A stretch of 49,641 bases of DNA from Prevotella sp. (GTDB taxonomy: Bacteria; Bacteroidota; Bacteroidia; Bacteroidales; Bacteroidaceae): positions 1 through 49,641 of the forward strand of contig JAFUEP010000043.1 in NCBI GenBank assembly GCA_017470345.1, written 5' to 3'. The translations under genes were made by a program, and so were the position numbers. The notes under the pieces are model-generated. The model was not told the origin of the DNA. It saw nothing but the letters and a program-made list of their open reading frames with translations, and did not search any database. Shown here piece after piece: positions 9,301 to 47,270 of the stretch (position 1 is the stretch's first letter; each line of letters begins with the position of its first letter).

Positions 9301-10088
9301 TGGACTACACATTGAACATCCGGGGCCGACTGCTGGACCTCAGCGAGCCCCTCGTCATGGGCATCCTCAACGCCACGCCCGACTCCTTCTTCGCCTCCAG
9401 CCGACAGCTGACGGAGGCCGACATCGCCCGCCGCGCCAACCAGATCATCGCGGAGGGCGGACGCATCATCGACGTGGGCGCCTGCTCCACGCGGCCGGGC
9501 TCCGAGCCCGTCAGCGAGGCGGACGAGGCGGACCGCCTCAGGCGCGCCCTCACCGTCGTTCGGCGCGAGCAGCCCGATGCCGTCGTCTCCGTCGACACGT
9601 TCCGCCCCGACGTGGCCCGCATGGCCGTCGAGGAGCTGGGAGCCGACATCGTCAACGACGTCAGCGAGGGCTCGGAAGCCATGTTCCGGATGGTCAGCCG
9701 CCTGCGCGTGCCTTACGTCATGATGTCCGTGCAGCCCGACCTGCGCCAGACGCTCCTCGCCTTCGCCCGCAAGGTGCAGCAGCTGCGCTCCATGGGCCAG
9801 AAAGACATCATCCTCGACCCCGGCTTCGGCTTCGGCAAGTCGCTTCAGGAGAACTATCGCCTCATGGCCGAGATGGAGCGCCTCGAGGTCATGGGCCTCC
9901 CCCTGCTCGTCGGCGTCTCCCGTAAGTCGATGATATACAAGCTATTGAATTCGACGCCCGATGACTGTCTCAATGGTACAACGGTGCTCAACACCATCGC
10001 CCTGATGAAAGGCGCCTCAATTCTCCGCGTCCACGATGTCGCTCCTGCCTGCGAGGCAGTCAGGATATGGAGGAAGGTTGAAGGTTGA
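9301..10088 (+). CDS. folP: Dihydropteroate synthase
   Basis: 262 aa TIM-barrel enzyme joining p-aminobenzoate to dihydropterin pyrophosphate in folate synthesis, cytoplasmic. Signatures: LVMGILNATPDSF (17-29), the loop DVGACSTRPGSEPVSEADE, VSVDTFRPDVA, DIVNDVSEG, ILDPGFGFGKS and GVSRKSMIYKLL with the pterin/phosphate-binding Lys and Arg, ending RVHDVAPACEA. The start is set by the promoter at 9284-9291. Its last codons (KVEG, stop) are already made of the GGTTGAA repeat of the cassette that follows. cdaA, its usual neighbour in Bacteroidetes, comes after the cassette. Confidence 0.95.
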
Positions 10089-10648
10089 AGGATGATGTGT
10101 GCGCTTCGCGCAGGTTGAAGGAGGAAGTATGAAGGTGGAGGGTTGAAGGTGGAGGGTTGAAGGAGACTGGAACATTAATTATCTAAAAATATATAAGTAT
10201 AACTATGAGTGATTTTGGTGATGTGATGCAGGACAAGTGCTTGAATTTTGCAATTCGAGTGGTCAATCTGTGCCAGTTTCTCAACGACGAAAAGAAAGAA
10301 TTCAAAATCGCTGACCAACTCTATCGCAGTGGGACCAGCATTGGTGCGAACTATGCCGAGGCCCAGTGCGCCATCAGCCATAACGACTTCATTGCCAAGG
10401 TGTATATCTCGCTAAAGGAGTGCAACGAATCCCTCTACTGGCTCCAACTGCTACATAAAACCGGGAAACTGACCAAGCAGCAGTTTGAATCAATCTATGC
10501 CGATGCAGAAGAGCTGAAGCGAATGCTCATCTCAATCACGAAATCAGCACGTCAAAAGGCTTCTTCCGTCAGCCCCTAATCCTTCAACCCTCAACCTTCA
10601 ACCTCGGCGAAGCCGATACCTCAACCTTCAACCCTCATCCCTCATCCC
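10075..10648 (+). mobile_element. Cassette 1: inverted-repeat-flanked four-helix-bundle gene between folP and cdaA
   Basis: The left arm (about 10075-10167) consists of GGTTGAA-type heptamers. The right arm (about 10576-10648) is the inverted counterpart (CTTCAACC-type). Each arm carries a small GC hairpin at a matching place (TGCGCTTCGCGCA left, TCGGCGAAGCCGA right). The left arm begins on the folP stop codon, and the right arm ends about 8 bases before the cdaA ATG. The 4HB stop codon lies in the inner edge CTAATCC of the right arm. The only gene inside points the same way as the host genes. Confidence 0.75.
10205..10579 (+). CDS. Four-helix-bundle protein (23S rRNA IVS / S23 family)
   Basis: 124 aa, all alpha. 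Family hallmark RSGTSIGANYAEAQ (about 42-55), then SLKECNESLYWLQLL and a final helix EELKRMLISITKSA. This family is known from open reading frames in 23S rRNA intervening sequences, and its Avd relatives serve diversity-generating retroelements; no reverse transcriptase or template/variable repeats occur here. One of four paralogues in this window (others at 37656, 39223, 44959). Basic, so nucleic-acid binding is likely but unproven. Confidence 0.9.
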   Translation: MSDFGDVMQDKCLNFAIRVVNLCQFLNDEKKEFKIADQLYRSGTSIGANYAEAQCAISHNDFIAKVYISLKECNESLYWLQLLHKTGKLTKQQFESIYADAEELKRMLISITKSARQKASSVSP

Positions 10649-10655
10649 TTAAACT

Positions 10656-11432
10656 ATGATTAGTTTTGGCATAAAAGACTTCATCGATATCCTGCTGGTG
10701 GCCATGATGCTCTACTACATCTACCGGCTGATGCGCGAGACCCGCTCGCTCAACATCTTCGTGGGCATCATGATCTTCATCGTCGTATGGATATTCATGT
10801 CGCAGGTGCTCGAGATGCGCCTCATGGGCACCATCCTCGATAAACTCGTCTCCGTCGGCGCCATCGCCCTCATCATCCTCTTCCAGGAGGACATCCGCCG
10901 GTTCCTATATAATATAGGTACGCGACAGGGCGTCAGCCGCATGATCCACTTCTTCGTGCCACAGCGCCTGGGCAACGTCAGCCGCGAGCAGCTCAAGCGC
11001 GACATCATGCCCGTCGTCATGGCCTGCATGTCGATGTCGAAGCAGAAGGTCGGCGCCCTCATCGTTTGGGAGCGGTCGCAGAGCCTGCAGGACATCGTGG
11101 CCACGGGCGACGTCGTCGACGCGGCCATCAACCAGCGGCTCATCGAGAACATCTTCTTCAAGAACTCGCCCCTGCACGACGGCGCCATGATCATCCACGA
11201 CCACCGCATCCGCGCCGCCGGCTGCATCCTCCCCGTCAGCCACGACCTCAGCATCCCCAAGGAACTGGGCCTGCGCCATCGCGCCGCCCTCGGCATGAGC
11301 CAGGAGAGCGACGCCCTCTGCATCATCGTCTCCGAGGAGACGGGCGCCATCAGCGTCGCCCGCGGCGGCGACTTCCGCCTGCGCCTCTCGGCCGAGGAAC
11401 TCGAGTCGGTGCTGACCGAGGAACTGGGGTGA
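10656..11432 (+). CDS. cdaA: Diadenylate cyclase (c-di-AMP synthase), CdaA type
   Basis: 258 aa. N-terminal membrane part with about three hydrophobic segments (residues 1-75: FIDILLVAMMLYYIYRLM, IFVGIMIFIVVWIFMS, LVSVGAIALIILFQ). The DAC domain (about 90-240) carries the active-site motifs DGAMIIHDHRI and RHRAALG. It makes c-di-AMP from two ATP at the inner membrane; c-di-AMP controls potassium and cell-wall homeostasis. The cassette repeat now ends directly before its start codon. Confidence 0.93.
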   Translation: MISFGIKDFIDILLVAMMLYYIYRLMRETRSLNIFVGIMIFIVVWIFMSQVLEMRLMGTILDKLVSVGAIALIILFQEDIRRFLYNIGTRQGVSRMIHFFVPQRLGNVSREQLKRDIMPVVMACMSMSKQKVGALIVWERSQSLQDIVATGDVVDAAINQRLIENIFFKNSPLHDGAMIIHDHRIRAAGCILPVSHDLSIPKELGLRHRAALGMSQESDALCIIVSEETGAISVARGGDFRLRLSAEELESVLTEELG

Positions 11433-11453
11433 AGACAATTTATCTGAGATGTG

Positions 11454-13103
11454 ATGAAATGGGCTAATATTGTTATCACTTTACTTGTTTTGCCTTTCTT
11501 GCTGCCACAACGGCTGGTCTGTCAAGAGTATAAGACCACACAGCAAGCACTGTGGAAACAGATGTCGATGAGACAGCTGCAGAGTTTGTCAGATGACTAT
11601 TACTACAAGCGGGATATGCTCGACAGTGCATTGCTGGGCTACTCCATTCTGGCCAATGCCTGTTTTGAACGCAAACTGGAGGGCGACGATCTGGGTATGA
11701 GCACCTATGGCAACTATATGCTGGGTGTGTTCTATTCAGAAAAGCTTCAGGACTACCCAAAAGCAATGGGCTACTTCCTTCAGGCTAACGACATGGCCGA
11801 ACAGGCCGGTTTCAAGCATATTGGCGCACACATCAAGCAGGATATCGCCAATATTGAGCACATCTACCAATTGATGACCAATTTGGGTAACGACACCCTC
11901 TCACTTCAGCGGCAGAAGGAAGTTTTCAAGGCTGCTTACGAAGCCAGGGAGTGGGATGCCTTTGTGCCTGCCTTTGCCAACATGCTCTCTGACGCCACCG
12001 CCACGTCGACGACCACTGGACTGGAAGAGGAAATTGAACTTTTCCTGAAAGCGGAAATACCCGACACCACGCATGGTTTGCACTTTGCTCGGAAAACCAT
12101 GGAAGCCTATCGGTCGATATGTAGTGAAGACTACGAGCATGCCCTGCAATGCTTCACCGAACTGACTCACTACACCGAAAGCAATTGTTATAAACACAAA
12201 CAGTACGGGCAGATGGCTCTGCGCAACAAACTTAATTTGTACTACAGGCTAAACCGTACAGAGGATGCTCTGGCCCTGATGGATACTATCATAGAGGTAG
12301 GCAAGCGCGATAATGACCATGAAGCCCTGTTCAACTCCTTCTTGCGCTTGTTTCAGTACTATGACAAGATTGGCGACACCATTGCGGCAAAGGAGTACAT
12401 GCTGCTGACTTACATTGAGAAAGATAATCTGATGCAGGGCAGCAACATTAAGGACGTAGGGCTCGTGAAGTTTGCCCACAAGCTGCATAGGGCTAACGAG
12501 GAAATCAGACTGTTGGCCTACAAGCGCCGCATGCAGCAGCGCGTGCTTTGGAGTGTGGTGGCTTTCGCTGTCATCGTCATCGGCTTTGCGCTGGCGCTCT
12601 GCTACAACTACCGTCAGGTGAAGCGCAAGAACCGTGAGCTCTACCAGAGAAACCTCGACTTGCTGGCTTCTGACGACGAAAAACACTTACTTCTGTCAAA
12701 AGCCAGGAAGCAGAACGTGACGGATGAGAACACCCCCGGCATGACAGACGATGCCCGGCGGCAAGATCTGTTACTCAGTATCATCACCGTCATGGAAAGC
12801 AGCGAAGAGGTCTACACTGACTCTTTCACGCTCGACCGTTTGTCCGAACTCGTAGGCGAGCGGCCCTATCTCGTCTCGCAGGTCATCAATGAGCAACGCC
12901 ATTGCAACTTCTATGCGCTGCTCGGCGAGTATCGTGTCAAAGAGGCCTGTCGCCGGCTTAACGATCACGAACACTACGGACAACTCACCATCGAGGCCAT
13001 CGCTCAGAGCGTAGGTTTCAAAAGCCGCAGCAACTTTGTCACTACGTTCAAGAAGTTCACGGGACTGACACCCTCGGTATACCAACGAATGGGACGCAAA
13101 TAG
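11454..13103 (+). CDS. Membrane-anchored AraC-type regulator with TPR sensor
   Basis: 549 aa. The frame opens one codon earlier with GTG; ATG at 11454 is preferred. Hydrophobic start/signal (ANIVITLLVLPFLLPQRLVC), a periplasmic helical-repeat region (about 25-350, TPR-like), one membrane segment (about 363-385, VVAFAVIVIGFALALCYNY), a basic and coiled linker, and a C-terminal AraC/XylS helix-turn-helix domain (about 437-545, with YLVSQVINEQRHCNFYALL and IAQSVGFKSRSNFVTTFKKF). Such one-protein transducers are common in Bacteroidetes. The next gene, a secreted protein with its own promoter, is the obvious candidate target (inference). Confidence 0.85.
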   Translation: MKWANIVITLLVLPFLLPQRLVCQEYKTTQQALWKQMSMRQLQSLSDDYYYKRDMLDSALLGYSILANACFERKLEGDDLGMSTYGNYMLGVFYSEKLQDYPKAMGYFLQANDMAEQAGFKHIGAHIKQDIANIEHIYQLMTNLGNDTLSLQRQKEVFKAAYEAREWDAFVPAFANMLSDATATSTTTGLEEEIELFLKAEIPDTTHGLHFARKTMEAYRSICSEDYEHALQCFTELTHYTESNCYKHKQYGQMALRNKLNLYYRLNRTEDALALMDTIIEVGKRDNDHEALFNSFLRLFQYYDKIGDTIAAKEYMLLTYIEKDNLMQGSNIKDVGLVKFAHKLHRANEEIRLLAYKRRMQQRVLWSVVAFAVIVIGFALALCYNYRQVKRKNRELYQRNLDLLASDDEKHLLLSKARKQNVTDENTPGMTDDARRQDLLLSIITVMESSEEVYTDSFTLDRLSELVGERPYLVSQVINEQRHCNFYALLGEYRVKEACRRLNDHEHYGQLTIEAIAQSVGFKSRSNFVTTFKKFTGLTPSVYQRMGRK

Positions 13104-13178
13104 CGTGTTTTTTGTACTTTTAGGCTTAAAAGAACAAAGCGGTGGAAGAAGTCACCCCTACCGACTGATATTTTTTTA

Positions 13179-13186
13179 TACTTTTG
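13179..13186 (+). promoter_or_regulatory. -7 element of the secreted-protein gene
   Basis: TACTTTTG, 42 bases before the start at 13229, after the AraC-type gene. No -33 TTTG at standard spacing, which would suit an activator-dependent promoter. Confidence 0.5.
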
Positions 13187-13228
13187 CGGTGTCAATTCAT
13201 ATTATTAACACCCTAAAAAAAGTAATCC

Positions 13229-20651: not shown

Positions 20652-21152
20652 AAGGACAGAAATTATTATAATTAATATAATTTAATGACGCGAGAGGAAT
20701 ATCGGGATATCTACGACATTGTGGGAGTAGCGCAGGAAGTCCACAAGACCTTAGGCCGCGGATTGTCTGAACCTATTTATCAGGAAGCAATGGCTATTGA
20801 GATGAAAGAGCAAGGTATGGATTTTGAACGAGAAAAGTTGCTCAATCTATACTACAAAAATCATCTGATGGTGAAAACATATTATGCCGATTTCTTCTAT
20901 AAAGGAATCATTGTTGAACTTAAGGCTGTAGAGGCTATATTGTCTGAACACCGCTCTCAGTTGTTCAACTATATGAGAATTACTCGCGTTAACAGGGGCG
21001 TGCTGATCAATTTCTGCGAGAAGAGTCTGAGAGCAGAACGTTACCTATACGTTCCTGACAATGATAAATTTGTCTTGCTGACGCAGGCCAATTACAAATT
21101 CTATATCGATGAACCATAAAAAATTATAATAATTATAATAATTTCTGTTCTT
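20652..21152 (+). mobile_element. Cassette 5: inverted-repeat-flanked GxxExxY gene between pta and ackA
   Basis: Arms 20652-20683 and 21121-21152 (32 nt each) match as inverted copies at 30 of 32 positions. They are AT-rich (start AAGGACAGAAATTATTATAA). The single gene inside is co-oriented with pta and ackA. The right arm ends 16 bases before the ackA ATG. Confidence 0.8.
20685..21119 (+). CDS. GxxExxY protein (PD-(D/E)XK-like)
   Basis: 144 aa. Name motif GLSEPIYQEA at about 27-36. A nuclease-like core follows: ADFFYKGIIVELKAVEAI (about 68-85) with Asp, Glu-x-Lys as in the PD-(D/E)XK fold, then QLFNYMRITRVNRGVLINF. The family is widespread in Bacteroidetes with no assigned function. Clearly AT-richer than pta and ackA on either side, and its stop codon touches the right arm of the cassette. 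Confidence 0.88.
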   Translation: MTREEYRDIYDIVGVAQEVHKTLGRGLSEPIYQEAMAIEMKEQGMDFEREKLLNLYYKNHLMVKTYYADFFYKGIIVELKAVEAILSEHRSQLFNYMRITRVNRGVLINFCEKSLRAERYLYVPDNDKFVLLTQANYKFYIDEP

Positions 21153-30434: not shown

Positions 30435-30519
30435 TTTTCTTTTTCAAACCACGAATTGAACGAATTAAACGAATTTCATGACTCGGCAGAATTCGTTTAA
30501 TTCGTGGTAGAAAAAGAAA
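30435..30519. repeat. Empty inverted repeat between the Cthe_2159-like gene and PAP2 gene
   Basis: The left arm 30435-30475 contains ACCACGAATTGAACGAATT in 9-base units. The right arm 30490-30519 is the inverted copy with one unit fewer. The loop is only 14 bases. It resembles the cassette arms without a gene, or a terminator. Confidence 0.65.
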
Positions 30520-33325: not shown

Positions 33326-33404
33326 GCTTGCAGGTCTGACCAGACTCCCCTCCTTGGAAAGGTCAGACCTTTCCAAGGAGGGGAGTAAAGTCAGGCCTGC
33401 AAGC
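33326..33404. repeat. Large palindrome, second copy of interspersed repeat type 1
   Basis: Two 39-nt arms (33326-33364, 33366-33404) around a single central base, 35 of 39 positions paired. Shares GCTTGCAGGTCT and ACTCCCCTCCTTGGAAAGG with the copy at 7467-7586 but lacks its GGGGGTGGTTGA portion. Lies between the ends of the BspA-like gene and the PheC-like gene. Confidence 0.85.
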
Positions 33405-36752: not shown

Positions 36753-36832
36753 GAAGTGCCCCTTTGAGGACGTCAAAGGGGCACTTCGCGTGGGTCAAAG
36801 GGGCGCTTTGCGGTGGTCAAAGGGGCACTTCG
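36753..36832. repeat. Inverted arm plus three 22-bp-period repeats beside lpxH
   Basis: GAAGTGCCCCTTTGA (36753-36767) is inverted to TCAAAGGGGCACTTC (36773-36787). Further copies begin at 36795 and 36817, each 22 bases on; the middle one reads GGGGCGCTTTG. The last copy runs almost into the lpxH stop codon. Same layout as 22376-22434 and 49574-49629. Confidence 0.8.
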
Positions 36833-36839
36833 CCGTGGG

Positions 36840-37604
36840 TCAGAGCTGGCTCTCGCCCTCGATGTACTGCGACATGAAGAGGTGCTCGCCGTCCCAGACG
36901 ACGTAGGAGAAATGCGAGATCCAGTCGCCGAGGATGATGACGCGGGCCTTGCGCGTCAGCTGTAGGTCGACCTCGATGTGGCGGTGGCCATAGATGAAGC
37001 AGTCGACGTTGGAGTGATACTGGATGTACTTCTTCGTATATAATATAAGGTGCTCGCGGTCTTCGCCCATGTAGGGGGGCTCCTCGCCGCCGGGGCGCTT
37101 CATGCGCGAGTGCTTGGCCCAGGTCTGTCCGAACCATACGCCCCAGCGGGGATGGACGGCGGCGAAGAGGCGCTGGCAGATGCGGTTGTGGAACATGGCG
37201 CGTATGACCTTGAACTTCGGGTCGGGGTCGCCCAGCCCGTCGCCGTGGGCCAGATAGAAGATGCGGCCGTAGAGCTCCGTGGTCAGCGGCTGGCGGTGGA
37301 TGATGACGCCGCACTCGCGCTCCAGGTAGTCGAAGGCCCAGATGTCGTGGTTGCCCGTGAAGTAGTGCACCTCGACGCCCATGTCTGTCAGTTCGGAGAT
37401 CTTGCCGAGGAAGCGCGTGTAGCCCTTTGGCACCACGTATTTATATTCGAACCAGAAGTCGAACATGTCGCCCAGCAGATAGACGGCAGCCGCCTTCGTC
37501 TTGATGGAGTCAAGGAAGCGTACGAGTCGCCGCTCCTGCATCCGCTTGTGCTCGAGTGCCCATGATCCGAGGTGGGCGTCGCTCAAAAAGTATATATTCT
37601 TCAT
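36840..37604 (-). CDS. lpxH: UDP-2,3-diacylglucosamine diphosphatase
   Basis: 254 aa metallophosphoesterase. Metal-binding motifs FLSDAHLGS (5-13), LLGDMFDFW (43-51), FTGNHDIWAF (about 79-88), and LAHGDGLGD (about 118-126). Length and the WFGQTWAKHSR insertion fit LpxH of Bacteroidetes. It hydrolyses UDP-2,3-diacylglucosamine to lipid X at the inner face of the inner membrane in lipid A synthesis. The cassette arm ends 5 bases before its ATG, so its upstream region is repeat-derived. Confidence 0.9.
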   Translation of the reverse strand: MKNIYFLSDAHLGSWALEHKRMQERRLVRFLDSIKTKAAAVYLLGDMFDFWFEYKYVVPKGYTRFLGKISELTDMGVEVHYFTGNHDIWAFDYLERECGVIIHRQPLTTELYGRIFYLAHGDGLGDPDPKFKVIRAMFHNRICQRLFAAVHPRWGVWFGQTWAKHSRMKRPGGEEPPYMGEDREHLILYTKKYIQYHSNVDCFIYGHRHIEVDLQLTRKARVIILGDWISHFSYVVWDGEHLFMSQYIEGESQL

Positions 37605-37608: not shown

Positions 37609-38082
37609 GATGAGAGATGAAAAGTGAAAGATGAAAGATATGATTACATTTTGCCCTACAACTTCCCAATCTTTTGTTTGAGGGTCTTAACCGACGTGAC
37701 GAGCATCTTGACAAGTTCCTCGCAGTCGCCGTTGATGGAATGGTATTCTTTTTCATTCAGGTAGTCTCCTTCATATAGTTTTTTCAACCAGTACTTTGTT
37801 TCGTCAGCTTCTTTTAGGGCAATATTCTGTTTACTTAAATAGTCTGCTGTGCTTTGGGCATTTCGGCTCTCGGCCAGATTGGCACCGATGCTTGTGCCGC
37901 TTCGAAGAACCTGTTTTGATAAAACAAACTCTTTCCTGTGTTCAGTCAGGATGTGATACATCTTGATGATTCTGCTAGAGAACTGATCAGATTTCTCTAA
38001 CAGAATGTTTGGCTTCCTTTGCATGATGGTTCAGCTTAAAGGTCTAATCATATCTTTCATCTTTCATTTCTCATCTCTCATC
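37609..38082 (-). mobile_element. Cassette 2: inverted-repeat-flanked four-helix-bundle gene between DUF59 gene and lpxH
   Basis: Arms 37609-37646 and 38045-38082 (38 nt each) match as inverted copies at 36 of 38 positions. They are built from heptamers such as GATGAAA and end inward in TATGATTA / TAATCATA. The outer end on one side is 2 bases from the DUF59 stop, on the other 5 bases from the lpxH start. The gene inside has the same direction as both host genes. Confidence 0.85.
37656..38024 (-). CDS. Four-helix-bundle protein (23S rRNA IVS / S23 family)
   Basis: 122 aa. Hallmark RSGTSIGANLAESRNAQ (about 42-58) and IALKEADETKYWLKKLY; the final helix is EELVKMLVTSVKTLKQKIG. Paralogue of the products at 10205, 39223 and 44959, but only moderately similar to them outside the motif, so the copies are not recent duplicates. 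Lies inside cassette 2. Likely binds nucleic acid as an oligomeric helical bundle (family inference). Confidence 0.9.
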   Translation of the reverse strand: MQRKPNILLEKSDQFSSRIIKMYHILTEHRKEFVLSKQVLRSGTSIGANLAESRNAQSTADYLSKQNIALKEADETKYWLKKLYEGDYLNEKEYHSINGDCEELVKMLVTSVKTLKQKIGKL

Positions 38083-38468: not shown

Positions 38469-39236
38469 CTACAATTTGCCCTGTTCGTGGTAGGAGTAGT
38501 AGCGGCCGTCGCTGACGATGACGTGGTCCATCAGCCGCAGCCGCATGACGTCGCAGGCCTGCTTGACCGTCCTGGTCAGCGCGTCGTCCTGGCGGCTGGG
38601 GGTGATGTTGCCGCTGGGGTGGTTGTGGCAGACGATGAGGAGCGTGGCGTTCGACAGGACGGCCTCGCGGATGATGATGCGCACGTCGACCGTCACCTCC
38701 GAGATGCCGCCGTGGGCTATCCTGACCTGCTTGATGAGGCGCTGGTCCTGGTTGAGGTAGAGCACCCAGAACTCCTCGACGTCGAGGTCCTGCATCTGTG
38801 GGTGCATGTGGTTGTAGACGCGTGTGGCCGTCGACAGCTGTGGGCGCTCCTCGGGCGTCTCCATCTGGCGGCGCTTGCCCAGCTCGCAGGCGGCGAGGAT
38901 GGTGATGGCCTTGGCCTCGCCGATCCCGTTGTATTGGCATAGGTCGTGGATGGTCAGCTTGCCCAGTGTGTTGAGGCTCCCCCGGCAGTCGTTGAGCACG
39001 CGCTTCATCAGGTCGACGGCGCTCTCCTTCGTCGAGCCCGACCCGATGAGGATGGCCAGCAGCTCGGCGCTGCTGAGTGCCTGAGCCCCCAGCCGCTCCA
39101 GCTTCTCGCGTGGGCGGTCCTCCTCGGCCCAGTTGGCTATGGTCAGCTTCTGGAGTGTAGAATGTAGAGTGTTGAGTGTAGAGTTTGCTACCGCCGTCTC
39201 ATTATTCTCTGCTTCTTTGTTGTCATTCTTTTTCAT
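38469..39236 (-). CDS. radC: RadC-family JAB/MPN protein with repeat-derived N-terminus
   Basis: 255 aa from ATG 39236. UPF0758/RadC: helix-hairpin-helix region (LTIANWAEEDRPREKL, LLAILIGSGSTKES, YNGIGEAKAITILAA) and a C-terminal metal-dependent JAB domain (HGGISEVTVDVR, CHNHPSGNITPSRQD, VSDGRYYSYHEQG). The usual RadC start lies near KLTIANWAEED. Here the preceding residues AVANSTLNTLHSTLQ are encoded by the arm of cassette 3, and the start codon overlaps the end of the four-helix-bundle gene by 14 bases. No later Met could serve, so translation depends on the cassette. DNA-repair role of RadC is unproven. Confidence 0.85.
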   Translation of the reverse strand: MKKNDNKEAENNETAVANSTLNTLHSTLQKLTIANWAEEDRPREKLERLGAQALSSAELLAILIGSGSTKESAVDLMKRVLNDCRGSLNTLGKLTIHDLCQYNGIGEAKAITILAACELGKRRQMETPEERPQLSTATRVYNHMHPQMQDLDVEEFWVLYLNQDQRLIKQVRIAHGGISEVTVDVRIIIREAVLSNATLLIVCHNHPSGNITPSRQDDALTRTVKQACDVMRLRLMDHVIVSDGRYYSYHEQGKL

Positions 39237-39600
39237 CGTTTTCCAAGTTTCTTCTGGCTGTTTTGATGGAACTGACAAGTAATTTGATGATTTCTTCGTT
39301 GTCGTTGTTTATCGAGTTAAATCCTCGTTGGTCGATGAGTCCGGCTTGGTGGCACATCTTTATCCAATATTGCGTCTCGTTAGCTTCTTTCAAAGCAATG
39401 CTCAGTTTGGTGATGAAGTCGGCTTTCGTTTGTGCGTTGATGCTTTCTGCTACATTAGCTCCGATGCTTGTTCCGCTACGATAGAGCTGTTTTGCCATGA
39501 CAACCTCATGCATTTCCCTCGTCAAGTATTGGTGAAGTTTTATAACTCGTAAAGCGAAGGTTTCCGTTTTGGTTTTAAGAATACTGTCTTTTCTCGGCAT
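39223..39600 (-). CDS. Four-helix-bundle protein (23S rRNA IVS / S23 family)
   Basis: 125 aa. Hallmark RSGTSIGANVAESINAQ and SIALKEANETQYWIKMC; the C-terminus NLENDEKE overlaps the start of radC by 14 bases, so the two are translationally coupled. Closest in sequence to the copy at 44959 (AKQLYRSGTSIGAN / AKQIYRSGTSIGAN). Inside cassette 3. Confidence 0.9.
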   Translation of the reverse strand: MPRKDSILKTKTETFALRVIKLHQYLTREMHEVVMAKQLYRSGTSIGANVAESINAQTKADFITKLSIALKEANETQYWIKMCHQAGLIDQRGFNSINNDNEEIIKLLVSSIKTARRNLENDEKE

Positions 39601-39608: not shown

Positions 39609-39684
39609 AATTAAAAAGAAGCGCGGTAACAAACTCTACATTCTCCAATTAAAAAGAAGTGCGGTAGCAAACTCTACATTCTAC
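39609..39684. repeat. Tandem 38-bp duplication in the arm of cassette 3
   Basis: 39609-39646 and 39647-39684 are direct copies with 3 differences, each starting AATTAAAAAGAAG and including CGGTA-CAAACTCTACATTCT. The arm has been partly doubled on this side only. Confidence 0.85.
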
Positions 39685-39699
39685 ATTCTACACTCTACA

Positions 39700-40752
39700 C
39701 TAAGAATAGAAGTTCTTCTCGAATGCCTGGAATTCGTCCTTCTTGAGCACGCAGCGCTTCCACCACGACTCGATGAAGCCGAGCCCGTAGCCCATCAGCT
39801 GCGTGAAGGCGGCGGGGACGCTGAGCAGTCCGACCTTCAGGCTCTTGTTCTTCAGCGACGAGTCGACGAGGATCACACCACTATATAATAAGATAGGCAG
39901 CCAGGGCGTGAGGCAGAGCCAGCGCCACTCATCGTTGTCGACGTAGTACATCAGCAGGCGCCCTGCGGCCGAGATGAGCACGAGGGCGATGACGCCGAGG
40001 GTGAAGACGGTGGGCAGCAGGTGGACGAGCTTCATCGTTCCCGGGTGGCGCTTCTCGAGGTTGATGCGTGCGATGCCGCTGTTGTAGACCTGGCGGAAGA
40101 ACTTCTTCAGGTCGGTGCGCCGCTTGTGCCACACCCATGCCTCGGGCAGCAGGGCGGTCTTGTAGCCGGCCTCGACGATGCGATAGGAGAAGTCGATGTC
40201 CTCGCCGAAGCGCATCTTCGAGAATCCGCCCAGCTGGCTGTAGACGTCGCGGCGTATGCCCATGTTGTAGGAGCGGGGATAGAACTTGTCCATCTTCTTG
40301 CCCTTGCCGCCGCGGATGCCGCCCGTGGTGAAGAATGAGGTCATGGCGTAGGAGATGGCCTTCTGCACGGGCGTGAAGTCCGGGTGGGCAGCGTCGGGGC
40401 CGCCCCAGGCGGCGATCTCCGAGGTGGAAGATGAAAGATGGAATCTTTCGTTTACGGCCACAAGATAGCCATCTGGCAGCACCACGTCAGAGTCGAGCAC
40501 GATGAGCCACTGGCCCCGGGCGCGCTCCGCGCCGTAGTTGCGGCTCTGGCCGGGGCCGCTGTTGGGCTTCATGAAGTATTTCAGGTCGAGCCGGTCAGCG
40601 TATTTGCGGCATACGTCTTCGCAGGGGGTCTGCGAGCCGTCCTCGACAATGATGACTTCGAAATCTTTCTCCTGCTGTGTGCAAAGGCTCTGGAGCAGCT
40701 CGTCGACCTCGTCGGGCCGGTTGTAGACGGGCACTATAATGGAATACTTCAT
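39700..40752 (-). CDS. Family 2 glycosyltransferase
   Basis: 350 aa. GT-A domain with SIIVPVYNRPDEVDELLQSL (4-23), VEDGS, the metal-binding LDSDVVLPDGYL (about 91-102) and GEDIDFSYRIVEAG. Two or three C-terminal membrane segments (about 245-310) anchor it to the inner membrane. GGPDAAHPDFTPVQKAISYAMTS separated as GGPDAAH and KAISYAMTS is typical of a Bacteroidetes subgroup of unknown acceptor. Residues FHLSSSTSEI before GGPDAAH are encoded by a heptamer run like the cassette arms (40423-40443). The stop codon overlaps cassette 3. Confidence 0.88.
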   Translation of the reverse strand: MKYSIIVPVYNRPDEVDELLQSLCTQQEKDFEVIIVEDGSQTPCEDVCRKYADRLDLKYFMKPNSGPGQSRNYGAERARGQWLIVLDSDVVLPDGYLVAVNERFHLSSSTSEIAAWGGPDAAHPDFTPVQKAISYAMTSFFTTGGIRGGKGKKMDKFYPRSYNMGIRRDVYSQLGGFSKMRFGEDIDFSYRIVEAGYKTALLPEAWVWHKRRTDLKKFFRQVYNSGIARINLEKRHPGTMKLVHLLPTVFTLGVIALVLISAAGRLLMYYVDNDEWRWLCLTPWLPILLYSGVILVDSSLKNKSLKVGLLSVPAAFTQLMGYGLGFIESWWKRCVLKKDEFQAFEKNFYS

Positions 40753-41427: not shown

Positions 41428-41474
41428 AACTGAATTTTATATATAATAATATTGAAAAAGGCGCTTTTGCGCTG

Positions 41475-41564: not shown

Positions 41565-41608
41565 CAGCCCGAAACGCTTGAATAAACTCAAATAAAAGTG
41601 ATATAACG

Positions 41609-41764: not shown

Positions 41765-41783
41765 TTTCCTACGCGCCACGACG

Positions 41784-41834
41784 AAGGACTGGCGGACGGA
41801 TGCCGAAAGGCGCCCGTCCGCCAGTCCTTTTTTG
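41784..41834 (+). terminator. rpmH terminator
   Basis: Sixteen-bp stem AAGGACTGGCGGACGG (41784-41799) / CCGTCCGCCAGTCCTT (41814-41829), then TTTTTG. Confidence 0.9.
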
Positions 41835-41853
41835 TCGGCGTGCGCCGCATGCT

Positions 41854-41937
41854 TATTTCGCCGTCGCGAAACACTATTTCAGCGCCGCCGAAATATATTT
41901 CAGCGCCGCTGCGATATATTTCAGCGCCGCTGAAATA
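41854..41937. repeat. Array of four 21-bp dyad units (locus B)
   Basis: Contiguous units 41854-41874, 41875-41895, 41896-41916, 41917-41937. Units 2-4 share the palindrome core TTTCAGCGCCGCTGAAA (unit 2 has one change, unit 3 two or three). Unit 1 is degenerate with TTTCGCCGTCGCGAAA. Followed by GTTTT, as in locus A at 9085-9168. Lies between the rpmH terminator and the PASTA gene promoter. Confidence 0.85.
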
Positions 41938-42009
41938 GTTTTATCCCCAAAAAGCGGCCCCTTTGAACATTTATTTGCGCAAACCTGCCGCGGCTTCATT
42001 TTTTTTTTG

Positions 42010-42017
42010 TAATTTTG
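42010..42017 (+). promoter_or_regulatory. -7 element of the PASTA-rluD-ddl operon
   Basis: TAATTTTG after a T-run, 24 bases before the start at 42042; it lies upstream of the chosen start and overlaps the longer frame from 42015. Confidence 0.5.
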
Positions 42018-42041
42018 CCGAGAATACAGAAGCAGAACGCA

Positions 42042-42707: not shown

Positions 42708-43813
42708 TGGACGTGACTGACGACGAACTGCTCGACGACGAGCTGGAACAACTGCTCGACGATGACGCTGAGGCACAGGCGGACGGCGAGGCGCAGACGC
42801 TCTTTGAGCATCTGAGGCTCGAGGTCGACCGCGGACAGGTGCCCCTGCGCATCGACAAGTACCTGGCCGAGCACACACAGCACTCCTCGCGCAACCGCAT
42901 CCAGCAGGCGGCCGAGGCCGGATTCCTCTTTGTCAACGACCGCCCCGTCAAGAGCAACTATAAGGTGCGCTCGGGCGACGTCATCACGCTGATGCTCGAC
43001 AGGCCCCACTACGACTCGACCATCGTGCCCGAGGAGATGCCCCTCGACGTGCGCTATGAGGACGACCAGCTCATGGTGGTCTACAAGCCCGCAGGCCTCG
43101 TCGTCCATCCCGGCTGTGGCAATTTCCACGGCACGCTCGTCCATGCCGTCGCATGGCACCTGCGCAATCTGCCCACTTATGACCCCAACGACCCGCAGGT
43201 GGGACTCGTCCATCGCATCGATAAGGACACCAGCGGACTGCTCGTCGTGGCCAAGACGCCCGAGGCGAAGTCGTCGCTCGGCAAGCAGTTCTTCAATCAC
43301 GACACGCATCGCTCCTACGTGGCCCTCGTCTGGGGCAACATCACCGACGACGAAGGCCGCATCGAGGGTAACATCGGCCGCGACCAGCGCGACCGCCTGC
43401 GCATGGCGGTCTATCCGCCAGGCTCCGACATCGGCAAGCCCGCCGTCACCCACTATCGCGTGCTCGAGCGCTTTGGCTACACCACGCTCGTGGAATGTCG
43501 GCTCGAGACGGGCCGCACCCATCAGATCCGCGCCCACATGACCCACATCGGCCATCCCCTCTTTGCCGACGAGCGCTACGGGGGCTGCGAGATACGCCGC
43601 GGCGAGCGCACAGCCTCGTATAAGGCCTACATCCAGAATTGCTTCAAGCTCTGCCCGCGCCAGGCGCTCCACGCCCAGACGCTGGGCTTCCGCCATCCCT
43701 CGACCGGCCGCCAGATGGACTTCACCAGCCCCCTGCCCGACGACATGCAGGCCCTCATCGAAAAATGGCGCAAGCTGACCCGCAATAACGAAAATGTCGA
43801 AATAACGTTATAA
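42704..43813 (+). CDS. rluD: RluA/RluD-family 23S rRNA pseudouridine synthase
   Basis: 369 aa. N-terminal acidic stretch (about 1-30), S4 RNA-binding domain (about 40-100, LRIDKYLAEHTQHSSRNRIQ read in parts), catalytic domain with HRIDKDTSGLLVVAKT (the Asp nucleophile, about 168-183) and LETGRTHQIRAHM. Overlaps the PASTA gene by 4 bases. Its last codons (NNENVEITL, stop) fall in an octamer repeat (43798-43885), so the natural C-terminus has been altered by the repeat. Confidence 0.93.
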   Translation: MMDVTDDELLDDELEQLLDDDAEAQADGEAQTLFEHLRLEVDRGQVPLRIDKYLAEHTQHSSRNRIQQAAEAGFLFVNDRPVKSNYKVRSGDVITLMLDRPHYDSTIVPEEMPLDVRYEDDQLMVVYKPAGLVVHPGCGNFHGTLVHAVAWHLRNLPTYDPNDPQVGLVHRIDKDTSGLLVVAKTPEAKSSLGKQFFNHDTHRSYVALVWGNITDDEGRIEGNIGRDQRDRLRMAVYPPGSDIGKPAVTHYRVLERFGYTTLVECRLETGRTHQIRAHMTHIGHPLFADERYGGCEIRRGERTASYKAYIQNCFKLCPRQALHAQTLGFRHPSTGRQMDFTSPLPDDMQALIEKWRKLTRNNENVEITL

Positions 43814-43885
43814 CGAAATATCGAAATAACGTTATAACGAAATATCGAAATCACGAAACATCGAAATAACGAAATCACGAAATAG
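43798..43885. repeat. Eleven tandem octamers spanning the rluD stop codon
   Basis: Contiguous 8-base units starting CG: CGAAATAA, CGTTATAA, CGAAATAT, and so on to CGAAATAG at 43878-43885. The rluD stop codon is inside the second unit; ddl starts 24 bases after the array. No gene and no clear inverted partner. Confidence 0.85.
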
Positions 43886-43909
43886 AACGAAATAAAATAA
43901 GAAAGAAAA

Positions 43910-44911
43910 ATGAAACCCGCTAAACGCACCATTGCCATCGTCTGCGGTGGCGACTCCTCCGAGCACGACGTCTCGCTCCGCTCCGCTCAGGGCCTCTACG
44001 GCTTCTTCGACAAAGACCGCTACAACGTATATATCGTCGACGTCAAGGGCACCAGCTGGCAGGTGGAACTGCCCGACGGCACCCTGACGCCCATCGACAA
44101 GAACGACTTCTCGTTCCGTATGAACGGCCGCCGACGCTTCTTCGACTATGCCTACATCACCATCCACGGCACACCCGGCGAGAACGGCATCCTGCAGGGA
44201 TACTTCGACCTGCTCCACCTGCCTTACTCGACGAGCGGCGTGCTCGTCGAGGCCATGACGTTCGATAAGTTCGTGCTCAACCAGTACCTGCGCGGATTCG
44301 GCGTCCGCGTGGCCGAGAGCATCCTCGTGCGGCGCGGTCAGGAGCAGCAGCTCGACGAGCAGAAGGTGCTCGAGACCATCGGCATGCCCTGCTTCGTCAA
44401 GCCCGCCAACGACGGCTCGTCGTTCGGTGTGTCGAAGGTGAAGAACATCGACAAGCTGGCCCCCGCACTGCGCATCGCCATGATGGAGAGCGACGAGGTG
44501 ATGATCGAGTCGTTCCTCGACGGCACGGAGATCACCGTCGGCTGCTACAAGACGAAGGACAAGCAGGTCGTCTTCCCCGTCACTGAGGTGGTCACGAAGA
44601 ACGAGTTCTTCGACTACGACGCCAAGTATAACGGTCAGGTCGACGAGATCACTCCCGCCCGCATCCCCGCCGAGCTGGCCAAGCGCGCCCAGGACCTGAC
44701 GTCGGCCATCTACGACATCCTCCACTGCAACGGCATCATCCGCATCGACTACATCATCACCCGTGGCGACGACGGCCACGACAAACTCAACATGCTCGAG
44801 GTGAACACCACGCCCGGCATGACCCCCACCAGCTTCATCCCCCAGCAGGTGCGCGCCGCCGGCCTGTCGATGACCGACGTGCTGACCGACATCGTGGAGA
44901 ACCAGTTCTAG
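43910..44911 (+). CDS. ddl: D-alanine--D-alanine ligase
   Basis: 333 aa ATP-grasp enzyme making D-Ala-D-Ala for MurF. N-terminal AIVCGGDSSEHDVSLRSAQ (with the Glu of the first D-Ala site), IHGTPGENGILQGYFDLL, central CFVKPANDGSSFGVSKV, and C-terminal IIRIDYI, MLEVNTTPGMTPTSFIPQQ. Third gene of the PASTA-rluD-ddl-acyltransferase series. The stop codon TAG is shared with the first repeat of cassette 4. Confidence 0.96.
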   Translation: MKPAKRTIAIVCGGDSSEHDVSLRSAQGLYGFFDKDRYNVYIVDVKGTSWQVELPDGTLTPIDKNDFSFRMNGRRRFFDYAYITIHGTPGENGILQGYFDLLHLPYSTSGVLVEAMTFDKFVLNQYLRGFGVRVAESILVRRGQEQQLDEQKVLETIGMPCFVKPANDGSSFGVSKVKNIDKLAPALRIAMMESDEVMIESFLDGTEITVGCYKTKDKQVVFPVTEVVTKNEFFDYDAKYNGQVDEITPARIPAELAKRAQDLTSAIYDILHCNGIIRIDYIITRGDDGHDKLNMLEVNTTPGMTPTSFIPQQVRAAGLSMTDVLTDIVENQF

Positions 44912-45374
44912 TGAATAGTTTACAGTGAATAGTGAATAGTTATGATTACCTTCTGCCTATGAAGCGGCCTGATAGTCCATTGCAGAGAAAGTCTGAAGCC
45001 TATTCTGGAAGAATAGTACGTCTGTATCGCTATTTGCTGAATACTAAGAAAGAAACGGTCATGGCCAAGCAGATTTATCGGAGTGGAACCAGCATTGGGG
45101 CTAATATTGCTGAAAGTCGGTACGCGCAAAGTGGGCCAGACTTTATCAGTAAGTTGAGTATTGCCCTGAAAGAGGCAGGTGAGACGGAGTATTGGTTGGG
45201 ATGCATTTATTCATCTGGACTGATAGATGAAAAGGGGTATGAGTCAATGCTCTCGGACAATACTGAAATCATGAAGATGCTTACGGCTTCGATTAATACA
45301 ATGAAGAAAAAATTAGGGATATAATAGATTCGGGACCAAGTCTAATCATAACTATTCACTATTCACTGTTCACT
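44910..45374 (+). mobile_element. Cassette 4: inverted-repeat-flanked four-helix-bundle gene between ddl and acyltransferase
   Basis: Left arm 44910-44948; right arm 45343-45374. The last 32 bases of the left arm match the right arm as an inverted copy at 30 of 32 positions. Units are GTGAATA heptamers; the inner ends are TATGATTA / TAATCATA as in cassette 2. The left arm begins on the ddl stop codon; the right ends 11 bases before the acyltransferase start. Gene inside co-oriented. Confidence 0.87.
44959..45324 (+). CDS. Four-helix-bundle protein (23S rRNA IVS / S23 family)
   Basis: 121 aa from ATG 44959 (MKRPDSPLQRKSEAYSGRIV); the frame is open from 44932, but that extension is repeat arm. 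Hallmark RSGTSIGANIAESRYAQ, SIALKEAGETEYWLGCIY, final helix EIMKMLTASINTMKKKLG. Basic, all-helical. Lies inside cassette 4. Confidence 0.9.
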   Translation: MKRPDSPLQRKSEAYSGRIVRLYRYLLNTKKETVMAKQIYRSGTSIGANIAESRYAQSGPDFISKLSIALKEAGETEYWLGCIYSSGLIDEKGYESMLSDNTEIMKMLTASINTMKKKLGI

Positions 45375-45384
45375 GACAACTAAA

Positions 45385-46521
45385 ATGACAGAGTTTGACG
45401 ACATCCGGCCATACGAGCCGCAGGAGATGAAGGAGGCATTCGGCGAACTGCTTGCCGACCGACATTTTAATGCCGTGATGAAAGGGCTGGCACCGTGGCT
45501 GCCGAAGGGCGTGCGCAACTGGCTGCTGCGGCTGGCCTTCACGGGCGTCAGGACGCCGCTCGACTTCCAGAAGCGCTTCATGAAGCCCGTCGTGAAGCAT
45601 ATCATCCGCAAACATTCCGACGGCTGCTCGTTCGACGACGCTGCGTTGCCCGCGGACAAGAGCCAGCGCTATACGTTCATCTCCAACCATCGCGACATCG
45701 TCCTCGACTCGGCCTTCCTCGACGTCATGCTCGTCGAGGCCGGCTATCCGACGACCGTCGAGATTGGCATCGGCAACAACCTGCTCATCTATCCCTGGAT
45801 CGAGCGGCTGGTGCGCATGAACAAGGCGTTCATCGTGCGCCGCGGCCTCTCACTGCGCGAGACGCTCGAGGCCAGCCAGCACATGAGCCGCTATATCCAC
45901 CATGCCGTCACCCGCAAGCACGAGAACATCTGGCTGGCGCAGCGCGAGGGCCGCGCCAAGGACTCGAGCGACCACACCCAGGAGGCCGTGCTCAAGATGC
46001 TGGCCATGGGGGGCGACCTCAGCGAGCTGAACATCGTGCCGCTGACCATCAGCTACGAGTATGACCCCTGCGACTACCTGAAGGCGCAGGAGTTCCAGCA
46101 GAAACGCGACAATCCGGCCTTCAAGAAGAGCAAGCAGGACGACCTCGACAACATGCGCACGGGCATCCTGGGCTATAAGGGCCGCGTGGCCTACCGCTGC
46201 TCTGCCCCTGTCAACACATGGCTCGGCGAGCTGAAGGACCTGCCCAAGAACGAGTTCTACAGCGCCCTGGCACAGCGCATCGACCGCGCCATCCATAGCG
46301 CTTACGTGCTCTATCCCGGCAACTACGTGGCGGCCGACCTGCTCAGCGGCACCGACGACTATGCCGACCACTACACCCCCGCCGACCGCCAGCGATTCGA
46401 GGCCTACCTGCAGCAGCAGCTCGACAAGATCACGCTGCCCGGGAAGGACGAGCCTTTCCTCCGCGAGCGCATGCTCACGATGTATGCCAACCCCCTACGT
46501 AACTATCTCGCCGCCCAATGA
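45385..46521 (+). CDS. 1-acyl-sn-glycerol-3-phosphate acyltransferase-family protein
   Basis: 378 aa. PlsC-like core with FISNHRDIVLDSAFLDVML (about 95-113) and the later blocks IERLVRMNKAFIVRRG and LAQREGRAKDSSDHTQ. The His to Asp spacing reads HX5D rather than the usual HX4D unless the first Asp serves. No clear membrane segment, so probably peripheral to the inner membrane. It would acylate a glycerophospholipid or a related lipid. Ends with a 4-base overlap (ATGA) with the next gene. Confidence 0.8.
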   Translation: MTEFDDIRPYEPQEMKEAFGELLADRHFNAVMKGLAPWLPKGVRNWLLRLAFTGVRTPLDFQKRFMKPVVKHIIRKHSDGCSFDDAALPADKSQRYTFISNHRDIVLDSAFLDVMLVEAGYPTTVEIGIGNNLLIYPWIERLVRMNKAFIVRRGLSLRETLEASQHMSRYIHHAVTRKHENIWLAQREGRAKDSSDHTQEAVLKMLAMGGDLSELNIVPLTISYEYDPCDYLKAQEFQQKRDNPAFKKSKQDDLDNMRTGILGYKGRVAYRCSAPVNTWLGELKDLPKNEFYSALAQRIDRAIHSAYVLYPGNYVAADLLSGTDDYADHYTPADRQRFEAYLQQQLDKITLPGKDEPFLRERMLTMYANPLRNYLAAQ

Positions 46522-47180
46522 AAACCGTCAAGTATGTTGCGATGTTATCGCAACTCGCAATCCTTCTGCTCGCTGCCTGCACCACCGATGCCTACGAAAA
46601 GGGCGAGGGCGAATACTCTGGTCTGCGGGGCGACCTGGCTGACCTGCAGGTCAACGCCGAGAAACAGGCTGAGACGGCCGTCACCGACGAGGACGACCGC
46701 CTGACGTTTGTCAACCCCTTCGCCACGAACTGGATTCAGAAGGGCGACACGACCTATCGGGCCTACATCTATTATAATAAGGAGGAGGGCGGGGCGGCCC
46801 GCGTGGTCAGTGCCGGGCAGGTGCTGGTGCTGCGCCCGCGGCGTGAGGACAAGCCGATGACCGACCCGACGGGGCTGGAGAGCATCTGGCTGAGTACGAA
46901 CAAGCGCTACCTCAACATGGCGCTGCTGCTCAAGGTGGGGCAGGACGGCAGCGACGACCTGCACCACGTGCTCGGTGCCACCTTCGACACCATCATGACC
47001 AACCCTGACCGCACGCGGACGATGCATCTGCGGCTTTACCACGACCAGGGTGGCGTCCCGGAATACTACACGCAGCGCTCCTACGCCAGCATTCCCCTCG
47101 ACGGCCTGCCCGTCGACTCCGTCTGCCTGCGAGTCAATACTTACGACGGGTGGCGCGAGCGGAGGTTCTCTGTTAAATGA
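46518..47180 (+). CDS. NigD-like lipoprotein
   Basis: 220 aa. Lipoprotein signal (YVAMLSQLAILLLAACTTD). N-terminal small barrel (about 55-110, DDRLTFVNPFATNWIQKGDT) and C-terminal beta-sandwich (about 120-215, ESIWLSTNKRYLNMALLLKV), the layout of Bacteroidetes NigD-like proteins; function unknown. Translationally coupled to the acyltransferase. Its stop codon TGA is the first repeat of the empty shell downstream. Confidence 0.8.
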   Translation: MKTVKYVAMLSQLAILLLAACTTDAYEKGEGEYSGLRGDLADLQVNAEKQAETAVTDEDDRLTFVNPFATNWIQKGDTTYRAYIYYNKEEGGAARVVSAGQVLVLRPRREDKPMTDPTGLESIWLSTNKRYLNMALLLKVGQDGSDDLHHVLGATFDTIMTNPDRTRTMHLRLYHDQGGVPEYYTQRSYASIPLDGLPVDSVCLRVNTYDGWRERRFSVK

Positions 47181-47270
47181 AAAATGAAAGATGAAAAGTG
47201 AAAGATATGATTAGACTTGTTGGTGGAATTAACTAATCATATCTTTCATCTCTCATCTCTCATCTTTCAC
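47177..47270. mobile_element. Empty cassette shell (arms without a gene)
   Basis: Arms 47177-47214 and 47233-47270 (38 nt) match as inverted copies at 32 of 38 positions around an 18-base spacer. The heptamers (ATGAAAG, GTGAAAG, ATGAGAG) and the inner ends ATATGATTAG / CTAATCATAT are the same as in cassette 2. The left arm includes the NigD-like stop codon, and the right arm the stop codon of the convergent dehydrogenase gene. Confidence 0.85.

What the first reader, a model, noticed from the sequence alone, without database searches (positions are those of the whole stretch)
10075..47270. A family of one-gene cassettes with locus-specific inverted repeats inside housekeeping gene series
Five small genes (four-helix-bundle at 10205, 37656, 39223, 44959; GxxExxY at 20685) are each enclosed by inverted arms: 36/38, 36/40, 30/32 and 30/32 matches where I could align cleanly, and a longer, looser pair at 10075. 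The arm sequence is unrelated between most loci, yet the construction is the same: mostly 7-bp tandem units, single passenger gene, passenger always co-oriented with the host genes, arms abutting the upstream stop codon and downstream start. No transposase is present. Four-helix-bundle proteins of this family are known from 23S rRNA intervening sequences, which are also bounded by inverted repeats that pair and are cut out. The cassettes may be the equivalent in mRNA: the arms pair, RNase III cuts, host messages are separated. Alternatively they are mobile elements moved in trans. Arms that differ per locus while staying paired imply selection for pairing.
Basis: partly seen in the sequence, partly recalled or inferred. 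Interest (0 to 1): 0.93.

Follow-up and report, generated by a model that had tools for sequence, protein, structure and literature searches.

The report
Hairpin-armed mobile genes inside operons
Small one-gene DNA elements with paired, repeat-built arms lie between the working genes of a gut-type bacterium, and gene-less relatives of them lie even inside genes; the same design turns up in many bacterial phyla and may be the wider family behind a protein known from inserts in ribosomal RNA.

Summary
The cassettes are real. All five window genes, and 16 of the 18 family genes found in this draft genome (10 four-helix "IVP", 8 GxxExxY), have paired flanks scoring above 200 shuffles. Of 80 IVP loci from public genomes of several phyla, 64 have arms scoring 16 or more, against 1 of 518 control placements. 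IVP arms are mostly 7-bp arrays (92 of 107). Arm sequence follows the passenger's kinship even between sites that share neither neighbour (r 0.326, 0 of 999), so arms plus gene appear to move as one unit. Within a site, arms diverge between species yet stay paired within each cassette. One arm core occurs 64 times in this genome (reversed control 0); one IVP gene lies between two such cores. Of 35 gene-less clusters, 14 are spanned by an ORF, ten in one same frame; for pyrG, 23 of 29 relatives lack any insert. The layout matches 23S rRNA intervening sequences, including heptamers reported in Coxiella. Selection for pairing in the sense RNA was tested and not seen. Best reading: a mobile hairpin element with MITE-like derivatives; RNase III cutting of host mRNA is plausible but unshown.

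The parts
10069..10164 (.). 5' arm region of cassette 1, heptamers of the type GAAGGTT
   Evidence: 74 nt, 74%; inner 24 nt, 96%; period 7; one search score 21, highest of 200 shuffles 10
10205..10579 (+). IVP (23S_rRNA_IVP, four-helix bundle) gene, 124 aa, between folP-like and dacA-like genes (neighbour names recalled from sequence)
   Evidence: PF05635 E 2.8e-25, TIGR02436
10574..10647 (.). 3' arm region of cassette 1 (begins in the passenger's last codons)
20652..20683 (.). 5' arm of cassette 2, 9-bp AATTATAAT-like units
20685..21119 (+). GxxExxY (PD-(D/E)XK_3) gene, 144 aa, between pta-like and ackA-like genes (names recalled)
   Evidence: PF13366 E 8.8e-33, TIGR04256
21121..21152 (.). 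3' arm of cassette 2
   Evidence: 94% of 32
37609..37646 (.). 3' arm (gene sense is -) of cassette 3, heptamers plus ATGATTA core
   Evidence: 95% of 38
37656..38024 (-). IVP gene, 122 aa
   Evidence: PF05635 E 8.8e-26
38045..38082 (.). 5' arm of cassette 3
39154..39194 (.). 3' arm (gene sense is -) of cassette 4, heptamers GTGTAGA plus core TTTGCTACCGC
   Evidence: lies in the start region of the radC-like ORF (name recalled)
39223..39600 (-). IVP gene, 125 aa
   Evidence: PF05635 E 2.8e-25
39661..39701 (.). 5' arm of cassette 4; 39609-39682 holds a 38-bp tandem duplication that repeats part of the arm
44906..44948 (.). 5' arm of cassette 5, heptamers GTGAATA plus ATGATTA core
44959..45324 (+). 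IVP gene (ATG 44959; GTG 44932 lies inside the arm), between ddl-like and acyltransferase-like genes (names recalled)
   Evidence: PF05635 E 3.4e-24
45343..45385 (.). 3' arm of cassette 5
   Evidence: inner 27 nt perfect
47175..47214 (.). left arm of an empty hairpin (18-nt loop, no gene), core ATGATTA
47233..47272 (.). right arm of the empty hairpin; the arms overlap the stop codons of two convergent ORFs
30441..30515 (.). empty hairpin of the 9-bp type (ACGAATTAA units), same pattern by eye as the arms of GxxExxY cassette L015 elsewhere in the genome

Best explanation
Each cassette is one copy of a mobile hairpin element. The element is a pair of inverted arms built of short tandem units (7 bp around an IVP gene; looser, perhaps 9-bp units around a GxxExxY gene), often with a conserved inner core, around a single gene. 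Arms and gene move together as a unit (inferred from kinship). Copies that have lost the gene, and single left-over arms, are MITE-like derivatives that multiplied to dozens in some genomes, including copies that run in frame through coding genes (ten ORFs in one frame; insertion checked against relatives only for pyrG). The arms stay complementary because one arm is re-copied from the other at the DNA level (fold-back template switching plus slippage of the 7-bp array; inferred from concerted change without a wobble signature). Insertions persist where they do least harm: in gaps of operons, co-oriented so that host transcription reads the passenger, or in the one open frame inside genes (inferred). 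Once transcribed the arms should form a stem that RNase III may cut, as in 23S rRNA intervening sequences (inferred, not shown). The passenger is the best candidate for the element's own factor, but which protein moves it is unknown.
For: Arms follow the passenger: over 3218 pairs not grouped as one site, arm 6-mer similarity rises with passenger identity (Mantel r 0.371, 0 of 999), and over 2969 pairs with no similarity of either flank it still does (r 0.326, 0 of 999). At two sites a clade with GTGTAGA units and TTTGCTACCGC core lies beside clades with other units. The L009-type passenger (74-100% identity, nine genomes) stands in six gene contexts as read by eye, eight of nine with GTGAAWA..TTTGCTNCCGC arms. 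Site comparison: 30 pta-ackA loci hold GxxExxY in 5 (by eye), IVP in 2, and otherwise other hairpins, single heptamer arrays or short gaps. Derivatives: 64 exact cores versus 0 reversed in the own genome; 32 of 150 genomes have 10 or more; 14 of 35 clusters are spanned by an ORF; 23 of 29 relatives' pyrG loci have no extra sequence at the insert. Nine of nine genomes with the L009-type gene have 10 or more core copies versus 23 of 141 others, p 3e-7 (cut-off chosen after the fact; at 67% identity 9 of 11 versus 23 of 139, p 1e-5). Concerted arms: within-cassette arm score exceeds the between-orthologue score in 137 of 149 same-site pairs.
Against: No precise empty site with target duplication was found; the pyrG insert seems to replace a few codons. 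No transposase-like protein was identified, and the passenger's activity is untested. G034 (59 core copies, 93% complete) and G018 (15 copies) have no IVP match, and 23 of 32 core-rich genomes lack the L009-type gene. Passengers mostly stay at their sites over speciation (18 label changes versus 47 in shuffles), so movement is rare. The within-versus-between arm comparison favours 'within' because arms were chosen as the best pair, and low-identity same-site pairs may be separate insertions. 16 of 80 cross-phylum IVP loci, 7 of 20 plasmid and viral IVP loci and 41 of 67 GxxExxY loci scored below 16. Only 14 of the 35 core clusters show opposed cores; 16 show a single exact core and 5 same-direction tandem cores.
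Confidence: 0.75

Rival explanations
1. mRNA intervening sequences: the arms are kept paired by selection because the stem is cut by RNase III in the polycistronic transcript, releasing the passenger and separating host messages.
For: Same family and layout as 23S IVSs, for which RNase III excision is reported (PMC4990558); four of five window cassettes fold arm to arm; co-orientation 69 ++ versus 0 -- among 88.
Against: G.U 99 versus A.C 149 mismatches, the wrong direction; inverted arms would pair in either orientation, so co-orientation speaks for expression rather than for pairing; gene-less copies inside coding genes would expose the host's own message to cutting.
Confidence: 0.3
2. Neutral low-complexity DNA: 7-bp arrays grow by slippage, hairpins form by quasi-palindrome template switching, and the genes are unrelated bystanders.
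For: Single arrays without partner or gene exist at the same sites; arrays vary in copy number between Planktothrix plasmids of 96-97% identity.
Against: All 7 hairpins with 390-470-nt loops found in 443 kb of this genome hold one of just two gene families; 64 of 80 versus 1 of 518 across phyla; arm type follows passenger kinship across sites.
Confidence: 0.07
3. Retro-mobility: IVP resembles Avd, the accessory protein of diversity-generating retroelements; a reverse transcriptase copies the hairpin RNA, self-primed by fold-back, which remakes paired arms in each round.
For: PF05635 resembles Avd (PMC10053308, passage read); the model would explain concerted arms and orientation with transcription.
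Against: No reverse transcriptase match in the own 62%-complete genome, and no association of reverse transcriptase with core-rich genomes: 15 of 32 versus 55 of 118, p 1.0.
Confidence: 0.08

Closest known systems
23S rRNA intervening sequences (IVS) with S23/IVP ORF
   Same: Same protein family in the loop between inverted arms, about 430 nt; heptameric tandem repeats and RNase III cutting are reported for the Coxiella IVS (PMC4990558, passages); gene-less forms also exist (recalled)
   Different: Here in intergenic gaps and, without the gene, in coding genes, not in rRNA; many copies per genome; cutting not shown
MITEs, and Rickettsia palindromic elements (RPE) in particular
   Same: Short palindromes in many copies; a large share lie in frame inside genes and encode a recurrent peptide (RPE as described in PMC10969869, passages read)
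   Different: Arms are 7-bp arrays with a core; here a gene-bearing relative with the same arms is known; sequence kinship was not tested
TAACTGA direct repeats of Beggiatoaceae; short tandem heptamers of cyanobacteria (the latter recalled)
   Same: 7-bp intergenic tandem arrays; the TAACTGA unit also forms the arms of a Verrucomicrobia IVP locus (L170)
   Different: Reported mostly as intergenic direct repeats, regulatory role suggested (PMC4679880, passages); the terms S23, four-helix and intervening do not occur in its main text
BrickBuilt MITE of Porphyromonas gingivalis
   Same: A Bacteroidota MITE containing a minisatellite (PMC4596501, listing and start of abstract only)
   Different: Described as strictly intergenic (PMC10969869, passage); no relation tested
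Foldback transposons of eukaryotes (recalled)
   Same: Long inverted ends made of short tandem repeats
   Different: Eukaryotic; different size and genes

Membership tests
23S rRNA IVS | S23/IVP-family ORF between terminal inverted repeats | tested here: met
   (four of the five window cassettes; the fifth holds GxxExxY)
23S rRNA IVS | lies inside an rRNA gene | tested here: not met
   window cassettes lie between protein ORFs; the only Rfam hit in the window at gathering threshold is a tRNA at 4257-4329
23S rRNA IVS | excised by RNase III | not testable with these tools
   needs RNA ends
MITE | short inverted-repeat element without a gene, in many copies | tested here: met
   64 cores in own genome; 14 of 35 clusters with opposed cores and no gene
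MITE | ends shared with an autonomous element | tested here: inconclusive
   same arms as the IVP-bearing copy L009, but that the gene product moves them is unknown
MITE | target-site duplication | tested here: inconclusive
   pyrG comparison shows no clean duplication; divergence too great
Rickettsia palindromic element | in-frame insertion in conserved genes with a recurrent peptide | tested here: met
   ten ORFs read ..KVKSEEFAAA.. and/or ..AAANSSLFTLHSSL.. in one frame; insertion shown against relatives for pyrG only
Rickettsia palindromic element | sequence kinship with RPE families | not tested
   analogy only
Classical insertion sequence | encodes a recognised transposase | tested here: not met
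   the window passengers match only IVP or GxxExxY models at significant score
Diversity-generating retroelement (Avd) | reverse transcriptase in the genome | tested here: not met
   no PF00078 match in the own genome, which is 62% complete

The most novel reading that the evidence does not exclude
A class of bacterial mobile elements spread over many phyla in which a small four-helix protein (or a GxxExxY nuclease) moves a hairpin whose arms are remade by self-copying in each cycle, so that the ends have no fixed sequence, only a period and a pairing; rRNA intervening sequences, RPE-like palindromes in coding genes and the unexplained heptamer arrays of several phyla would be its forms and remains.
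Probability: 0.3. Interest if true: 0.95.

Novelty: new variant of a known kind. Interest (0 to 1): 0.82.

Why it matters
IVP/S23 proteins are described as having no known function (PMC4990558, passage). Finding that they commonly ride on heptamer-armed hairpins in many phyla, with gene-less relatives that run in frame through coding genes, turns that old question into a concrete one: does this protein move hairpins? It also offers one possible origin for several unexplained repeat families, and a natural source of new peptide loops in essential enzymes such as CTP synthase. Arms that change sequence while staying paired would be an unusual kind of transposon end.

Tried and rejected
RNA-selection test by mismatch type: gave the opposite direction; the excess fits a general preference for A on the sense strand (A.A 65 versus U.U 35). 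Reverse-transcriptase link: no association. Idea that the 3' arm is an inverted copy of a local target array: rejected as the general rule because arms follow the passenger across sites. Near-identical filled and empty DNA: the three Planktothrix plasmids found all carry the cassette; the viral loci were only tested for arms, not followed to empty partners (L224, a fragment, not tested). Exact boundaries: not obtained. GxxExxY arms: weaker (26 of 67 score 16 or more) and a 9-bp period in only 2 of those 26, none clear in 21, so the 9-bp pattern rests on the window copy and on reading by eye. Structure prediction was not run; relatives with solved structures are 2rld and 2gsc. Rfam: nothing at the cassettes at gathering threshold. 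Rows dropped or picked: L069 (same as L004) and L086 were left out; the 12 'other' IVP loci (11 with arms) had been picked from the 20 mainly because they had arms, so the unpicked figure there is 96 of 118, and 13 of 20; one search removed four duplicates. Literature: searches (open-access library only). I saw titles and starts of abstracts; none of the listed ones announces these cassettes outside rRNA. I read passages of PMC4990558, PMC10969869, PMC4679880, PMC11270868 and PMC10053308, and no whole paper. Gene names of neighbours and host genes (pta, ackA, ddl, radC, lpxH, folP, dacA, pyrG, RNase R and others) are recalled from the protein sequences, except those printed.
Full report
WHAT IS THERE. 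The window is one contig (C42) of a 2.67-Mb, 62%-complete draft genome. Relatives found by its IVP proteins include many records titled Prevotella and allied Bacteroidales, so it is probably a Prevotella-type organism (inference). Four small genes are PF05635 / TIGR02436 four-helix 'IVP' proteins and one is PF13366 / TIGR04256 GxxExxY, a predicted PD-(D/E)XK nuclease. Each sits between inverted arms. With the upstream flank aligned to the reverse complement of the downstream flank, 16 of the 18 family genes found in the genome (10 IVP, 8 GxxExxY) score above all 200 shuffles; L001 ties with the best shuffle and L007 fails. A sixth hairpin of the same style, without gene, lies at 47175-47272.

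NOT A LOCAL ODDITY. In 443 kb of this genome an ungapped census found 25 hairpins with a stem score of 18 or more; the seven with loops of 392-466 nt are all IVP or GxxExxY cassettes, and the other 18 have loops of 0-116 nt (the census misses cassettes with weaker or gapped arms, such as L010 and L017). Of these 80, 64 have arms scoring 16 or more, against 1 of 518 random placements in the same loci; that one control scored 47. At least two of the 80 (L133, L143) repeat loci of the genus set. Of 107 IVP arms of 16 or more, the best period is 7 or 14 in 92, 8 in 5 and none in 10 (96 of 118 unpicked loci plus 11 of 12 picked ones). In plasmid and viral records 13 of 20 IVP loci reach 16. GxxExxY arms are weaker: 26 of 67 reach 16, and a 9-bp period shows in only 2 of those, although units such as ACCACAGAGGNCACAGAG recur by eye.

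ARMS AND GENE MOVE TOGETHER. Among 101 IVP cassettes of the genus (83 with arms of 16 or more), sites were grouped by both flanking genes. The passenger tree follows site (18 changes of site label, 47 in shuffles), so many cassettes are inherited in place, but the two largest sites hold more than one clade. Over 3218 pairs not grouped as one site, arm similarity rises with passenger identity (r 0.371, 0 of 999). Because some ungrouped pairs may share a site, I repeated this with pairs that show no similarity of either flank: 2969 pairs, r 0.326, 0 of 999. The L009-type passenger stands in six gene contexts, read by eye, in nine genomes, with the same arms in eight; two more distant relatives (67% and 72%), with heptamers but without the core, come from genomes with no core copies. 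At pta-ackA 30 loci show five GxxExxY (by eye), two IVP, several gene-less hairpins, lone heptamer arrays and short plain gaps. At ddl the script measured the gap in 12 relatives of 29: 0-180 bp, no passenger gene, one with a lone arm (L103); 5 lacked the motif for the end of ddl, in 12 the next gene was not recognised (one of these, L112, also begins with a lone arm), and three further relatives do carry IVP cassettes there (site S04).

HOW THE ARMS EVOLVE. Cassettes at one site keep well-paired arms while the unit sequence changes: within-cassette arm scores exceed between-orthologue scores in 63 of 63 pairs at 55-65% passenger identity, 36 of 38 at 65-75%, 31 of 35 at 75-85% and 7 of 13 above (biased towards 'within', since arms were picked as the best pair). 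If pairing were selected in the sense RNA, surviving mismatches should favour G.U over A.C; in 157 cassettes there are 99 G.U-type and 149 A.C-type (p 0.002), and 95 versus 147 in 153 without duplicates (p 0.001). The direction is wrong for sense-RNA selection.

GENE-LESS COPIES AND ENTRY INTO GENES. The core AATTTGCTNCCGC occurs 64 times in this draft genome and 0 times reversed. In the genus search it occurs 10 or more times in 32 of 150 genomes and not at all in 75; the reversed control reached at most 4 in any genome. Of the ten IVP genes, one (L009, C58) lies between two such exact cores. Of 35 other clusters examined, 14 show opposed cores, 16 a single exact core and 5 same-direction tandem cores; clusters near locus ends were skipped, and the C58:13415 hairpin was seen only. 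Fourteen are spanned by an ORF. Ten of these read KVKSEEFAAA-like and/or AAANSSLFTLHSSL-like peptides in one same frame; four (L368, L378, L384, L391) use other frames and may not be real genes. In the consensus hairpin only that frame is free of stops. Insertion was checked against relatives for CTP synthase alone: of 29 relatives' loci 23 have no extra sequence there; L399, L400, L401 and L413 have other heptamer arrays at the same loop, and L398 and L410 other extra residues, so this loop seems to have been entered repeatedly. The insert seems to replace a few codons, and I could not define a target duplication.

HOW IT MOST LIKELY WORKS. Shown: arms, period of IVP arms, spread, linkage of arm type to passenger, gene-less copies, an in-frame insertion in pyrG and nine further ORFs read through in the same frame. 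Inferred: movement as a unit, fold-back copying of arms, and use of host transcription (69 ++, 0 --, 13 -+, 2 +-, 4 undecided among 88 cassettes; cross-phylum 47 ++, 3 --, 8 -+, 4 +-, 6 undecided among 68). Unknown: the enzyme. Nine of nine genomes with the L009-type gene (74% or more) are rich in the core, against 23 of 141 others; the cut-off was chosen after the fact, and at 67% the figures are 9 of 11 and 23 of 139. This fits movement in trans by the IVP element, but G034 and G018 are rich in the core without any IVP match. Reverse transcriptase genes show no association.

COMPARISON WITH THE KNOWN. The Coxiella 23S IVS has a 28-bp stem, the S23 ORF in the loop, RNase III cutting inside the stem and tandem heptamers before the ORF (PMC4990558; passages). 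IVP ORFs are also reported in inserts of 16S and 23S rRNA genes of CPR bacteria (PMC11270868; passage). The cassettes share the IVS design but lie outside rRNA, so they are not 23S IVSs; they may be the wider class from which IVSs come. The gene-less copies resemble Rickettsia palindromic elements (PMC10969869, passages), with no kinship tested. TAACTGA arrays of Beggiatoaceae (PMC4679880, passages) have the same unit as the arms of locus L170, a lead only.

VERDICT. Observation confirmed and much extended; interpretation partly supported. Interest 0.82; new variant of a known kind, with a bolder reading left open.

Noticed in passing
window 7466-7587 and 33326-33404; L048, L055, L058, L060, L062, L064, L068 (pta-ackA gap): A second palindrome family with CCCCTCC...GGAGGGG arms, no gene, recurrent in this genome and at the pta-ackA gap of relatives; the RNase R-like ORF of L364 seems, by eye, to hold one in frame beside the heptamer hairpin.
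   Followed up: partly
L225, L226 (Planktothrix plasmids): An IVP cassette with heptamer arms sits between drmD and a gene annotated as MmeI-type enzyme in a DISARM-type defence region; array copy number differs between strains at 96-97% identity.
   Followed up: partly
L230 (Bacteroides finegoldii plasmid): GxxExxY gene between radA and an FAD-dependent protein gene with ACCACAGAGGACACAGAG-like arms, a repeat pattern also seen around other GxxExxY genes.
   Followed up: partly
window 9106-9168, 36772-36842, 41867-41937, 43784-43895: Other locus-specific tandem or palindromic arrays with 21-24-bp units and no passenger gene.
   Followed up: no
L170 (Verrucomicrobia IVP locus): Arms made of AACTGAT units, the same heptamer as the TAACTGA repeats described in Beggiatoaceae.
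   Followed up: no
L007 and several relatives: Some IVP genes carry an internal stop, so passengers seem to decay in place.
   Followed up: no
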